A DNA stretch of 64,000 nt from Nitrospira tepida (GTDB lineage: Bacteria; Nitrospirota; Nitrospiria; Nitrospirales; Nitrospiraceae): NCBI RefSeq assembly GCF_947241125.1, contig NZ_OX365700.1, positions 3,070,001 to 3,134,000 of the forward strand, read 5' to 3'. How positions within the stretch are numbered: the first letter of the stretch is position 1; every line of letters starts with the position of its first letter. A program made the translations under genes and the position numbers. Shown piece by piece: positions 2,306 through 7,082 of this stretch. Below the pieces are notes generated by a model. That model was not told where the DNA came from. It ran no database searches and worked only from the letters and a program-made list of their open reading frames with translations.

Positions 2306-3202
2306 TCAGGACCGTTGAAACACTTCGTTGTCGTTGATATCAATGACGGCAGAAAGCTGATAGGCATCCGGCTCATTGTAGAGCGGATGGTCGAAGACAT
2401 GAAGAGTATACATCTGGTCCGTCCACCACCAACGGTAGTGAGCCGGGACATAATGAGCTAAGCCCTTGATAGCGGAAATCTTGCGCATCGCATGACTTTC
2501 GTTGAACTCTGTAATAGCAAGACCCTCTCCTGAGAATTCACTGAAATCTTTACCAACCGCGCAGCGGAAACTACAGGGCATGCGTGGAATCACATGTTTG
2601 TGCTGTCCATCAAATAATCGTAAGGCATCCCGAGTTGAGGTATACATCCCTAGATCTACCGCAACAAAAGCCATTGGGGCAGGAGAGCCCGTTAAGAATT
2701 CAGGAACCGTAGAACTGAGCAATCCAAATCGGAGTGAGGCCCGCTTTAGTCTCCTAAGCAATTCGTCCTTGTCGCATGGATAGTATCCTTCCCGCCACTT
2801 AAAGGGATTATCTCGATAGTCTTGCGGTTTCGGTAATCCAACCCCTGTATCAAACCCGTACACGTCTATGCTAATTCCCACAATATCTGAACAGAGTTCA
2901 GCCGTTCGTTCCATCGACACCAATCCGGCTCCACCAGCGACCCCGATCTCCAAAATGGAAATCCGCTCGAGCCCAAGAACCTTGCTGAGCGCTGCGCCTT
3001 GCATAATACCCCATATATATGCGGGCCGTTTGCAACACAATGGATCCTTCATAAGCCGATCCATTGTCCCCCAGAGCCATGTATAGCTATTGTCAAATGG
3101 AATCTCGCTGTTTGAGGTGGAAGGCCTGGCCTGAGGCAGTTCTTCAGTAAGCCAGCTTCGTAGACCGCCGATGATCCCCCTTACGATCCGCTTCGCAGAC
3201 AT
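2306..3202 (-). CDS. Putative SAM-dependent methyltransferase of the polysaccharide locus
   Basis: A 298-residue cytoplasmic protein with no signal peptide. Residues 103-112, ILEIGVAGGA, look like motif I of a class I methyltransferase (glycine-rich loop after an acidic strand), and FVAVDLGMYTSTRDALRLFD is reminiscent of the TylF/CmcI-type sugar methyltransferases, where an Asp at this place binds metal. Beyond this I do not recognise the protein. It sits between the ABC exporter ATPase and rfbF in the same orientation, so it probably modifies a sugar of the exported glycan. It could instead be a degenerate or non-catalytic relative. The local base composition is A+T rich like the rest of this locus. 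Confidence 0.65.
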   Translation of the reverse strand: MSAKRIVRGIIGGLRSWLTEELPQARPSTSNSEIPFDNSYTWLWGTMDRLMKDPLCCKRPAYIWGIMQGAALSKVLGLERISILEIGVAGGAGLVSMERTAELCSDIVGISIDVYGFDTGVGLPKPQDYRDNPFKWREGYYPCDKDELLRRLKRASLRFGLLSSTVPEFLTGSPAPMAFVAVDLGMYTSTRDALRLFDGQHKHVIPRMPCSFRCAVGKDFSEFSGEGLAITEFNESHAMRKISAIKGLAHYVPAHYRWWWTDQMYTLHVFDHPLYNEPDAYQLSAVIDINDNEVFQRS

Positions 3203-3312
3203 TTACAGTCTCCTCGCGTAATACTCTTGCTCTGTTGATGGTGGATCACATCCTACGACTGCAGTTTTATCGACGGCGGGTCTCAGATGTTCCATTTCAA
3301 TTTCACACCATT

Positions 3313-4605
3313 TCAACTGTGAATGACAGGAAAGAACTGAGTACTCCACTTCAGCATAGGCCTTATCGCTCCCTCAAGTTCTCCCATGTAATCACCGCGA
3401 GCTGAACCGTCCTCCAGATTATCTATGACTTGGAACGCTATCACCTCTTCTGTCCCGAAGTGAATGACGTATGGGTCCAATGAGAGACACCAAGCGCTGA
3501 CAAAAAACGTTCCCTCACCCAAGAAGTTCCCTGGTACCCACGCGGTACTCACGTATCGACCTTGCGGTCGACTGCGCCGACGCCAGTCTGGGTCTAGGTC
3601 CAGTGCCTCAAACAGTGTTATGCCGTCTTCCCCTATCAGCTTCAACGACGGTGTGAGTGCTGGGCTCTCCTCTAATACCTCAAATTCAATCTCGATCGCA
3701 AATCCCTGCCTTATATCGACTACATCGTCAATTCGTCCGTCACTGAGCCTGACGCGAACCCCTCGAAGGCGAACACGATCATCGCCGGGAGCCGATCGCT
3801 GATCGATCCATTCTCGGCTTGATCGTGCTCCCACTCCTGAATGCAAGTATGAACTAACAACCTGATGAGTCGGACCATCTCCGACAAGCTGCCCTCTCTC
3901 AAGGTATAAGACCCGCCTACACAATCTTGTCACGGCCTGCATATTGTGGGAAACAAAAATCACGGTTCGCCCCTGCTCACCCATATAGTGCATCCTGTCC
4001 AGGCACTTTTTCTGGAATTGCATGTCACCAACCGCGAGTACCTCATCTACAATAAGCACCTCCGGTTCCAGATGCGCGCCGACCGCAAAAGCCAGCCGGA
4101 CATACATGCCAGTGGAATATCGCTTGACCGGCGTATCAATATATTGCTCAATCCCCGCGAATGCGACGATTTCGTCGAATTTCCTCGTGATTTCCGATTT
4201 TCCCATACCAAGAATGCTGCCACTGAGATAAATATTGTCGCGCCCTGTCAGATCCGGATGAAATCCCGTTCCTACCTCCAACAGAGTGCCCACGCGCCCG
4301 AATATTTCAGCTCTCCCAGATGTCGGTTCAGTGATACGGGACAGGATCTTGAGCAGGGTACTCTTGCCGGCTCCGTTGCGGCCGATAATTCCGACCACGT
4401 CGCCCTTGGCAATCTCAAAGGAAACGTCCCTCAACGACCACACATCCTCTCTCTGGTAATGTATCCTCCGGCTGGATCGTTCAAAGGAGATCAGCCGCTG
4501 CACACTGTCTGCGAGACGGCCGGCGAGAGATTGGTCAGCGCGGTGTCCTACTGTAATCGAATACTTCTTGCAGAGGCGTTCGGCCTTGACAGCAATGTTT
4601 CCCAT
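3313..4605 (-). CDS. wzt: Polysaccharide ABC exporter, ATP-binding subunit with C-terminal sugar-recognition domain
   Basis: A 430-residue Wzt-type ATPase. Walker A is GRNGAGKST (75-83), the ABC signature is YSTGMYVRLAFA (about 163-174), Walker B is LIVDE (184-188) and the H-loop His is at 220. The N-terminal 240 residues are the nucleotide-binding domain. The following 180 residues are a beta-rich extension as in Wzt proteins, where it reads the capped non-reducing end of the O-antigen before export. It works with the permease encoded upstream. Between the two lies a 364-base gap holding a 217-bp inverted-repeat element, whereas wzm-wzt pairs are normally nearly contiguous, so expression may now be partly uncoupled. 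Confidence 0.93.
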   Translation of the reverse strand: MGNIAVKAERLCKKYSITVGHRADQSLAGRLADSVQRLISFERSSRRIHYQREDVWSLRDVSFEIAKGDVVGIIGRNGAGKSTLLKILSRITEPTSGRAEIFGRVGTLLEVGTGFHPDLTGRDNIYLSGSILGMGKSEITRKFDEIVAFAGIEQYIDTPVKRYSTGMYVRLAFAVGAHLEPEVLIVDEVLAVGDMQFQKKCLDRMHYMGEQGRTVIFVSHNMQAVTRLCRRVLYLERGQLVGDGPTHQVVSSYLHSGVGARSSREWIDQRSAPGDDRVRLRGVRVRLSDGRIDDVVDIRQGFAIEIEFEVLEESPALTPSLKLIGEDGITLFEALDLDPDWRRRSRPQGRYVSTAWVPGNFLGEGTFFVSAWCLSLDPYVIHFGTEEVIAFQVIDNLEDGSARGDYMGELEGAIRPMLKWSTQFFPVIHS

Positions 4606-4755
4606 TTCAGTCTCTAGCGGCCCATGTTCAAAATCGGTTCATAATGGTATCCAAATTTTCACTTCGTCCGAACTGAGATAGCATTCTCAGCTCTATGCGC
4701 GGCTCGTTCCAAGCTCCGGCAACTTCACGTAGGTTCTCTGCTGCCTTGTCCATCT

Positions 4756-4972
4756 TAGCCCGCATTATTCATGACGGTTCGTGACGAAACCGACAAGACG
4801 CCAGGCGAGACGGGCACGCGGAGCCCCACCGAGGGTGAGGCATACTTGAAACAGTATGTCGAGGCCTTGAGGGGCGAGCCTGCCCGCCAGCATGCGCTGC
4901 AAGCCGCATGCTGGCTCGTCGCAGCGGCATATCGGCGGTTGCAGTAGAAGCGTTCATGAATAATGCGGGCTA
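4756..4972. mobile_element. 217-bp MITE-like element with perfect 19-bp terminal inverted repeats
   Basis: The ends are TAGCCCGCATTATTCATGA (4756-4774) and its exact reverse complement (4954-4972). If the true terminus is CCCGCATTATTCATGA, the outer flanks are TTAG and CTAG, a possible 4-bp target duplication with one change. The element lies in the wzm-wzt gap, and the wzm stop codon (4970-4972) forms its right edge. It carries a 58-codon open frame but no recognisable full transposase. It could be a non-autonomous derivative of an insertion sequence mobilised in trans, or a folded regulatory hairpin. The family was not identified; the terminal sequence is reminiscent of some IS ends but I could not compare it. 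Confidence 0.75.
4771..4947 (+). CDS. Possible 58-residue ORF inside the inverted-repeat element
   Basis: The ATG lies inside the left terminal repeat (TCATGA) and the frame stays open to TAG at 4945-4947, almost spanning the element. The product is rich in charged residues in its first half (TDKTPGETGTRSPTEGEAYL), followed by a plausible amphipathic stretch ending in LVAAAYRRLQ. It matches no family I know. No Shine-Dalgarno sequence was identified, since the region upstream is the repeat itself. It may be a residue of a transposase reading frame, a small element-encoded protein, or chance. Orientation is opposite to the surrounding operon. Confidence 0.3.
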   Translation: MTVRDETDKTPGETGTRSPTEGEAYLKQYVEALRGEPARQHALQAACWLVAAAYRRLQ

Positions 4973-5851
4973 GATGACGTCAGCGAATGTTCGTTCTACG
5001 CGGTTAAAATATGCAGTGGCGCCCAAGAGCACGACAAAGATGGTGCTCACATTGGCCAAGAGCATTCCGATATGGGGCGGATGCGTTCCAAGCAATGCCC
5101 AGCGAAACCCATCGATCACGCCTACCATCGGATTGATCAATGCATACCACGTCCGCCACGTCTCAGGGATGAGACTGGACGGATAAACAACAGGAGACGC
5201 AAACATCCATAATTGAGTGATAAGTGGAACGGCTGCGCCGACATCTCGATATCGCACATACAAGGCAGATAGCCAAAGACTAACGGCCAAAGAGGTCCCG
5301 ACTGTCAGCAGCATAAAAACCGGCACTAGCAACACGCCCCATGTCGGAGTGATACCGAACCACGCCATCAGAATAAGCAACAAAGCAAACGCGATGGCAA
5401 AATCGAGGAGGCCGCCGAGCGTGGCAGAGAGTGGGACCACAATACGAGGAAAATACACTTTGGTGATGAGATTCGATTCTGCCACAACGCTGAAACCGCT
5501 CCTATCTAAGCTCTTCGCAAGATAACTCCAGGGAACCAGCGCCGCATATGCAAAGAGCGGATAGGGCAGCCCATCCGATGGCATATTTGCAAGCCGTCCG
5601 AACACGAGCGTATATACAACCATCATGATGAGCGGTTGGAGAACGGCCCAGGCTAATCCGATTGCCGTCTGGGCATAACGCGCCTTCAAGTCTCGCCAAG
5701 CCAGAAAATAGAGTAGCTCCCGATATTTCCACAGCGACTCAAGTCCGAAGCTTAGAACACGCTTATTGGATTCGATGATTACGGTGGGCACTTGCATTGT
5801 TTCGACCTTCTCCATACGGTAGCCCCTTGAGCCTATTGAGGTTGAAGCCAC
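4970..5851 (-). CDS. wzm: Polysaccharide ABC exporter, permease subunit (ABC-2 type)
   Basis: A 293-residue inner-membrane protein with about six predicted transmembrane segments. It has the ABC-2 polysaccharide exporter motif in YRELLYFLAWRDLKARY (the amphipathic coupling region) and a typical C-terminus, YFNRVERTFADVI. An internal start at Met13 (MEKVETMQ) is also possible. Together with Wzt it exports a completed lipid-linked glycan across the inner membrane. The C-terminus appears natural, so the adjoining repeat element has landed exactly at the stop codon without shortening the protein. The 241 bases upstream, before the deacetylase gene's 3' end, hold no convincing gene; a 30-codon minus-strand frame (5908-5997, GTG start) is the only coding-like remnant. 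Confidence 0.94.
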   Translation of the reverse strand: MASTSIGSRGYRMEKVETMQVPTVIIESNKRVLSFGLESLWKYRELLYFLAWRDLKARYAQTAIGLAWAVLQPLIMMVVYTLVFGRLANMPSDGLPYPLFAYAALVPWSYLAKSLDRSGFSVVAESNLITKVYFPRIVVPLSATLGGLLDFAIAFALLLILMAWFGITPTWGVLLVPVFMLLTVGTSLAVSLWLSALYVRYRDVGAAVPLITQLWMFASPVVYPSSLIPETWRTWYALINPMVGVIDGFRWALLGTHPPHIGMLLANVSTIFVVLLGATAYFNRVERTFADVI

Positions 5852-6092
5852 TCCTCGCAGGAATTACGACACATTATTATGAGGATGAGAGAAGAATTCG
5901 ACAGTAGCTACTTGGCGGTGTGCTGTGGGGTAGCCGGCAACACAGCAGCCCGATATTCGCGCATGAATTGCACCAATTGCATGCCGAGCTGGATCACTTC
6001 ACTCTTGATTTAGGCACCAGACGACTCTGCCAACTCGTTCTAGATGCGTGTCCGTATTGTGGCTTTGAATACGCTATGTGCCCAATTGATGG

Positions 6093-7082
6093 TCACAGAA
6101 TCGCACCCACATTAGACAGAGTATCATTTTCTTGCCGCTCCCCTCGGACCATTCCCTTAGGTTCGTTCCTCTTCGCCATACGCGCATAGATCTCACGTAC
6201 CGGGATGATTATTTCTTTGATCGGAGCAAATGCAAAATCGTCTAGAAGTCTCGTAAGCCGTTCATGTGTCCGATGTAAGTTGGTATAATGTCTGAAGCGC
6301 GACAGGCGTGAACCCTTCATTCGAGGTTGGTCGGGGTCAATTTCCCACGGGTGAAAATATGTGACAAGTGGAGAATTTGTTCCTTCGGCCTTCTGAAAAA
6401 GAGCCTTGAACATCCAATACGGGAAAATCCTAAAATATCCTCCCCCCCCTATTGGGACTCTCATTCCACAGATACTAACGGTTGAAGGTGGAATTTCCCA
6501 GATAATTCCGGATTCCGTCTTAAGCTGGTGCACGACGCTCGGAGCTTCTGGCATGCCATATCGATCATGAATGATCGGGACTATACTGGTGTCATATCCA
6601 TATCCTTCTTCGCAAAGAATGGACAGCGCCCAACTGCTTTTGTTTGTAATGGAGAAACTTGGGGCCCTATATCCACACACATGCTGCCCGGTCAAATCTT
6701 CAAGAATAGCCTTAGTCTTCCTGATATCCTCTCGAAATTTTTGAGGAGCTTGCGAAGTAACCAGCTCATGAGCATACCCATGCGAGGCTATCTCATGACC
6801 ACCTGCACAGATTCGCCTGACAAGCGCAGGACAACGTTCTGCCACCCATCCCAAAATAAAGAAGGTTGCTCTGAGTCCCTTAAACTCTATCAAGTCCAAA
6901 ATCTTATCCGTATTCCTCTCAACGCGGCTCTCAAAAAGATCCCAATTGTGCCTTCGTATCGGCGACTCGAATGCTGACACCTGGAAATGCTCCTCGATGT
7001 CAAACGAAAGACAGTGCACTGGCCTGAATTCCTTCGGCATATAAGTAGGATCTTTATCGTGCCCCTTCACCGAAAATGACAA
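6093..7082 (-). CDS. Polysaccharide deacetylase, XrtA/PEP-CTERM locus type (DUF3473)
   Basis: A 329-residue NodB-fold deacetylase. The first metal-site motif is SFDIEEHFQ and the second is SHGYAHELV, matching the HxxxH site of carbohydrate esterase family 4. The segment YRAPSFSI and the late PLVTYFHPWEID are hallmarks of the deacetylases found in exosortase-associated exopolysaccharide loci. It should remove acetyl groups from N-acetylated sugars of the exported glycan. There is no clear signal peptide. It overlaps the following sugar transferase by 29 bases (7054-7082), implying translational coupling. No exosortase gene is visible in this window, so the link to protein sorting is by family only. 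Confidence 0.9.
   Translation of the reverse strand: MSFSVKGHDKDPTYMPKEFRPVHCLSFDIEEHFQVSAFESPIRRHNWDLFESRVERNTDKILDLIEFKGLRATFFILGWVAERCPALVRRICAGGHEIASHGYAHELVTSQAPQKFREDIRKTKAILEDLTGQHVCGYRAPSFSITNKSSWALSILCEEGYGYDTSIVPIIHDRYGMPEAPSVVHQLKTESGIIWEIPPSTVSICGMRVPIGGGGYFRIFPYWMFKALFQKAEGTNSPLVTYFHPWEIDPDQPRMKGSRLSRFRHYTNLHRTHERLTRLLDDFAFAPIKEIIIPVREIYARMAKRNEPKGMVRGERQENDTLSNVGAIL

What the first reader, a model, noticed from the sequence alone, without database searches (positions are those of the whole stretch)
4756..4972. 217-bp inverted-repeat element inserted exactly at the wzm stop codon
Perfect 19-bp terminal repeats, a possible 4-bp YTAG target duplication and an internal 58-codon frame. 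It splits the normally tight wzm-wzt pair. Only the stop codon of wzm is shared with its edge. If it is a mobile unit it may alter coupling between permease and ATPase.
Basis: seen in the sequence. Interest (0 to 1): 0.58.

Follow-up and report, generated by a model that had tools for sequence, protein, structure and literature searches.

The report
Nitrospira-family mini-transposon at stop codon
A 211-base mobile DNA element without genes of its own sits exactly at the end of a sugar-export gene; the same element is scattered dozens of times in this genome and through its bacterial family, borrows the ends of a known jumping gene, and folds into a shape that evolution has preserved.

Summary
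The element proper is 4759-4969 (211 bp). Its true terminal repeat is 16 bp (CCCGCATTATTCATGA); the other 3 bp of the "19-bp repeat" belong to a 4-bp YTAR target duplication (TTAG/CTAG here). The genome holds about 84 copies. Related copies occur in 149 of 175 genomes of the family. An empty site with a single CTAG in a sister species shows the family is mobile. Complete IS1380-family elements in relatives carry the same ends, 16/16 or 20/20 bp; the window's own genome has no transposase of that subgroup. The 58-codon frame is an accident of a 1-bp insertion. An effect on wzm-wzt coupling is untested.

The parts
4755..4758 (.). left copy of the 4-bp target duplication (TTAG)
   Evidence: Sequence. 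YTAR at both edges in 44 of 65 own-genome copies, identical edges in 35 of 65.
4759..4774 (+). left terminal inverted repeat, CCCGCATTATTCATGA
   Evidence: Same 16 bp at one end of IS1380-family elements L197 and L198.
4759..4969 (+). the MITE; structured strand is + (antisense to wzm and wzt)
   Evidence: Covariance model hit G000:C1:3074759-3074969 (+), 224.7 bits; covariation.
4954..4969 (-). right terminal inverted repeat
4970..4973 (.). right copy of the target duplication (CTAG); contains the wzm stop codon TAG on the - strand (4970-4972)
   Evidence: wzm ORF is complement(4970-5851).
4771..4947 (+). 58-codon frame, rejected as a gene
   Evidence: Not conserved among 39 copies; no Pfam match.
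4970..5851 (-). wzm-like ABC-2 permease (host gene, intact)
   Evidence: PF01061 E 2.8e-22.
4628..4753 (-). 41-codon ORF between MITE and wzt, starting 1 base after the duplication
   Evidence: function not tested.
3313..4605 (-). wzt-like ABC ATPase (host gene, intact)
   Evidence: PF00005 E 1.4e-20.

Best explanation
A MITE of a family spread through the whole bacterial family (Nitrospira and relatives). It carries IS1380-type terminal repeats and was moved by an IS1380-family transposase acting in trans, inserting at YTAR and duplicating 4 bp. Shown: multicopy, shared ends with complete IS1380 elements in relatives, 4-bp duplication, and an empty site for one copy in a sister species. Because YTAR contains TAG/TAA, insertion into a stop codon rebuilds it, so the element lands harmlessly at gene ends; that is what happened at wzm. 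Inferred: trans-mobilisation itself, and that the interior, a covarying multi-helix fold, is kept because the single strand or transcript folds (for example as a nuclease-processed or transcript-stabilising hairpin).
For: 44 blastn pieces in the own genome at 72-100% identity and 101 model matches, about 84 distinct elements. Three pairs of copies are 100% identical at different loci. 149 of 175 family genomes match. Empty site: G109 has ...GCGACTAGCCTTG..., G108 has CTAG-MITE-CTAG, flanks 94% identical. IS1380 transposase (NF033539, E 2.7e-122) in viral contig L190 with CTAG + CCCGAATTATTCATGA ends; relatives in 27 of 175 family genomes. 10 of the 30 fetched loci have the terminal repeats (up to 4 mismatches) at both ends of a 1.68-1.74 kb unit, up to 20/20 bp identical to MITE ends. 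Stop codons: 26 of 65 copies vs 24 of 217 non-coding YTAR sites, p=1e-6. Structure: 97.6% of cells paired vs 88.7% in shuffles, 220 vs 71 double-changed cells, 0 of 500 shuffles.
Against: No IS1380 element with these ends is in the own genome: the L190 transposase finds 0 matches at E<=1e-3, and the six IS1380-type hits there have other ends. Outside the 20-28 terminal bases no MITE/IS similarity was found, so the MITE is not a plain deletion derivative. No empty site is available for the window's own copy (genus of one genome). Strand evidence for RNA is modest: on 39 pairs common to both strands' folds, 64 changes to G.T vs 35 to A.C, p=0.005; on the first 39-copy set 41 vs 24 cells but 24 vs 20 columns. 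No transcription data. Copies at stop codons lie 12 sense and 14 antisense, so no single mRNA role is indicated.
Confidence: 0.88

Rival explanations
1. The fold is kept at the DNA level only: palindromic arms are repeatedly rewritten by template switching at replication, or the hairpin matters for transposition, and no functional RNA exists.
For: 136 double Watson-Crick changes against 64 G.T and 35 A.C intermediates on the tree; the terminal repeats covary as well; no orientation preference relative to host genes.
Against: G.T changes exceed A.C changes on pairs common to both strands, p=0.005; the + strand consensus is far more stable (-78.6 vs -43.5); hairpin loop TTGAAAC is nearly invariant.
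Confidence: 0.4
2. A small gene: the 58-codon frame encodes a peptide.
For: ATG-stop frame of 58 codons in the window copy.
Against: Of 39 aligned copies nearly all have a stop at about codon 26; the window copy escapes it by a 1-bp insertion. No Pfam match.
Confidence: 0.01
3. A fixed regulatory or terminator structure of the wzm-wzt operon, not a mobile element.
For: Strong hairpin on either strand.
Against: Dozens of copies at unrelated loci, target duplications, empty site for a family member; absent between wzm and wzt in two Nitrospira contigs.
Confidence: 0.02
4. Mobilised by an IS5-like element, which also uses CTAG targets in this genome.
For: Other IS in the genome have CTAG-type edges.
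Against: None of the 21 PF01609 loci has the MITE ends as its own ends (nearby MITE copies excepted), whereas IS1380 elements in relatives do.
Confidence: 0.04

Closest known systems
Correia/NEMIS elements of Neisseria and other bacterial MITEs (reviewed in PMC2229807, passages seen)
   Same: 100-200 bp class, terminal inverted repeats, no transposase, transcripts predicted to fold into long stem-loops, many copies.
   Different: TA-type termini there, 4-bp YTAR here; different repeats; here the parent type is IS1380 and the fold is backed by covariation.
bcr1 of the Bacillus cereus group (listed in PMC2267715, passages seen; details recalled)
   Same: About 150-bp mobile repeat with a conserved predicted fold and no genes.
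   Different: Unrelated sequence; a different host group.
RUP elements moved by IS630-Spn1 in pneumococcus (PMC2229807 passages for RUP; IS630-Spn1 recalled)
   Same: MITE whose terminal repeats match those of a full IS thought to move it.
   Different: IS630/TA there, IS1380/YTAR here; here the IS is missing from the host genome.
REP elements as targets of IS110-family IS621 in E. coli (recalled; PMC11208160 listing and abstract start only)
   Same: A dispersed palindromic repeat serves as landing site of an RNA-guided IS110 element.
   Different: The target here is itself a mobile MITE.

Membership tests
MITE | short, non-coding, multicopy | tested here: met
   Own-genome sizes mostly 176-450 bp, one 76 bp; about 84 copies; frame not conserved.
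MITE | terminal inverted repeats | tested here: met
   16-bp perfect repeats.
MITE | target-site duplication on insertion | tested here: met
   Empty site with one CTAG, filled site with two; 35 of 65 identical duplications.
MITE | repeats shared with a transposase-bearing element | tested here: met
   IS1380 elements in relatives; none in the own genome.
IS1380-mobilised element | moved by an IS1380 transposase | not testable with these tools
   Needs a transposition assay.
IS1380 family (IS) | encodes DDE transposase PF13701 / NF033539 | tested here: not met
   No conserved coding frame; it is not itself an IS1380.
Rfam families | match to a described structured RNA | tested here: not met
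   0 matches at E<=1 in window 3000-7000.
structured non-coding RNA | covarying base pairs beyond chance | tested here: met
   33 of 62 pairs, 0 of 500 shuffles; slid structures 30-46% paired.
structured non-coding RNA | is transcribed and folds in the cell | not testable with these tools
   No expression data.

The most novel reading that the evidence does not exclude
The MITE is a vehicle for a functional structured RNA: a roughly 210-nt, three-way-junction RNA with a conserved TTGAAAC hairpin loop, carried by IS1380 transposases through a whole bacterial family, placed preferentially on stop codons so that it rides on host transcripts without harming genes, and used in turn as a landing pad by an RNA-guided IS110 element.
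Probability: 0.25. Interest if true: 0.65.

Novelty: new member of a known kind. Interest (0 to 1): 0.42.

Why it matters
It explains a family-wide repeat in nitrifying bacteria that my four literature searches did not find described. It shows how a YTAR-targeting mobile element can spread through compact genomes by settling on stop codons that its own target duplication rebuilds. The covarying interior and the IS110 landing site make two questions directly testable: whether MITE folds act as RNA, and how an RNA-guided IS picks a mobile repeat as its home.

Tried and rejected
IS5-type and own IS1380 elements as parents: ends do not match. IS-sized pairs of the exact ends (CCCRCATTATTCATGA) among the listed places of nine family genomes: none seen (read by eye). 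In the own genome the pairs of about 1.34-1.36 kb turned out to be MITEs carrying an IS110 insert. Plasmid and phage collections: no match. Exact-end scans of viral contigs: 3, 6 and 1 stretches; one gave the IS1380 lead, L190. Rfam: nothing. Coding frame: rejected. Replication-strand bias: only read by eye, assuming an origin near base 1; none seen, not a test. A large first estimate of G.T over A.C (121 vs 28) was mostly due to pairs chosen by the + strand fold; on pairs shared by both strands' folds it shrank to 41 vs 24 and, with more copies, 69 vs 37; I rely on the latter.

Rows dropped: alignment A1 used 39 of 48 elements extracted (left out: four 191-bp copies of the short class, one 191-bp copy with a different interior, three near-duplicates, and L181, a deletion copy). 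Context counts used 65 of 70 loci (two IS110-split, one duplicate, two without both ends). The large alignment dropped 1 of 79 added loci (L342), then 117 copies were thinned to 95 at 95% identity. wzm-wzt spacing was measured for 34 of the 80 loci: 14 of 34 have an ABC ORF starting within -200 to +10 bp of the wzm end, 3 within 43-110 bp, 1 at 437 bp, 4 at 1.4-2.3 kb, and 12 have none found, several of them at a contig end.

Full report
What is there. The inverted repeat is perfect and unique in the window. Genome-wide, its end pattern occurs 159 times with up to 2 mismatches against 0 for the reversed control. The whole element returns 44 blastn pieces in the 4.73-Mb genome. A covariance model gives 101 matches; setting aside 11 counted on both strands and 6 second halves of IS110-split copies, about 84 elements remain. 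Only 150 of 2771 first-look candidates were scored, so this may be an undercount. Sizes of 65 measured copies run from 76 to 450 bp, mostly 190-211 and 239 bp.

Borders. Edges read YTA|...|TAR in most copies: the element is CCCGC...GCGGG (4759-4969) and the duplication is the 4-bp YTAR. Both edges are YTAR in 44 of 65 copies and identical in 35 of 65. In the window copy they are TTAG and CTAG. An empty site was found for a copy in genome G108: its relative G109 has a single CTAG where G108 has CTAG-element-CTAG, with flanks 94% identical. A second relative, G107, also lacks the element and in addition lacks 6 bp next to the site.

Source of the ends. None of the DDE_Tnp_1 (21) or IS1380-type (6) hits in the own genome has these ends as its own. 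An end-pattern scan of viral contigs led to L190, which carries a 468-aa IS1380 transposase between CTAG + CCCGAATTATTCATGA and CTAG + CCGGGATTATTCACGA. Its relatives occur in 27 of 175 family genomes, not in the own genome. Of 30 loci fetched there, 10 show the repeats (up to 4 mismatches) at both ends of a 1.68-1.74 kb unit, two of them starting at a contig edge. The match to MITE ends reaches 16/16 bp (L197, L198) and 20/20 bp (L199), and stops within 20-28 bp. The MITE therefore shares ends, not interior, with the IS.

Distribution. 149 of 175 genomes of the family match the DNA, 21 of 22 genera. A scan of 395 genomes of the phylum with the model finds it in 107, of which 10 lie outside the family, at weaker scores. 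Recent activity: three pairs of copies in the own genome are 100% identical; in G128 six copies have perfect ends and perfect duplications.

Stop codons. In 26 of 65 copies the duplication contains the stop codon of an ORF of at least 100 aa, against 24 of 217 non-coding YTAR sites in the same flanks (odds ratio 5.4, p=1e-6). With ORF limits of 70 and 150 aa the counts are 28 and 23 of 65 (p=2e-4 and 1e-8). The gene finder is a simple one written for this purpose. The reading: a YTAR in frame as TAR is by definition a stop, and duplicating it leaves the gene whole. The wzm case is one of these.

The wzm-wzt site. In two Nitrospira contigs the wzm stop TAG is followed at once by the wzt ATG. 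In the window the MITE lies between the wzm stop and a 41-codon ORF whose ATG comes one base after the duplication; wzt starts 22 bases beyond that ORF. About 150 bp of the 364-bp gap is thus not due to the MITE. No effect on coupling was tested.

Interior. The 58-codon frame is not conserved. An alignment of 39 copies (21 own, 18 from other genomes) gives a consensus fold of 62 pairs, 33 with compensatory changes. 97.6% of cells pair, against 88.7% in shuffles and 30-46% when partners are slid; double-changed cells are 220 against 71; 0 of 500 shuffles reach either. Single-copy folding of the window element gives z = -8.6 (+) and -7.6 (-), much of it due to the terminal stem. With 95 non-redundant copies the + strand consensus is -78.6 and the - strand -43.5 kcal/mol; on the 39 pairs common to both folds, changes to G.T number 64 and to A.C 35 (p=0.005). 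This favours a folded + strand (RNA or single-stranded DNA) but does not prove a transcript.

IS110. A 1144-bp IS110-family element (NF033542, E 4.9e-63) has 10 copies identical over the 1131 bases searched. Seven of 10 lie in the MITE, at one site next to the conserved hairpin and in one orientation; the other three lie at sites sharing GAG|GGC (for L388 one MITE end is too diverged for the end pattern, its MITE match is). That IS110 elements use a bridge RNA is published (PMC11208160, abstract start seen); that this one does so here is inferred.

Literature. Searches for Nitrospira with MITE, IS1380 with MITE, Nitrospira with repeats and MITE with stop codons gave no paper that, from its listing, describes this family; only listings were seen for these. 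Bacterial MITEs with folded transcripts are well known (PMC2229807, passages; PMC2267715, passages).

Verdict. A new MITE family of a known kind, well supported. The conserved fold, the stop-codon preference and the IS110 landing site are the parts that deserve follow-up.

Noticed in passing
L380-L389 (own genome); within-MITE copies L380, L382, L383, L384, L385, L388, L389: A 1144-bp IS110-family element in 10 identical copies; 7 of 10 are inserted at one site and orientation in the MITE core, the other 3 at sites sharing GAG|GGC.
   Followed up: partly
L188:801-1044 (viral contig IMGVR_UViG_3300015264_000082): An element with the same terminal repeats and CTAG edges but an unrelated, largely palindromic interior.
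   Followed up: no
L190:8571-10200 (viral contig IMGVR_UViG_3300037855_000041): A complete IS1380-family element with CTAG edges in a viral contig.
   Followed up: partly
window 4628-4753 (-): A 41-codon ORF between the MITE and wzt that is absent in the Nitrospira contigs L091 and L092.
   Followed up: no
own genome, 450-bp class, e.g. L269, L270, L274: A larger size class shares the ends and, by the model, only the core hairpin (model positions 61-119) with the 210-bp class: the interiors look modular.
   Followed up: no
L296 (G107): At the empty site of the G108 copy, G107 lacks 6 further bp beside the target.
   Followed up: no
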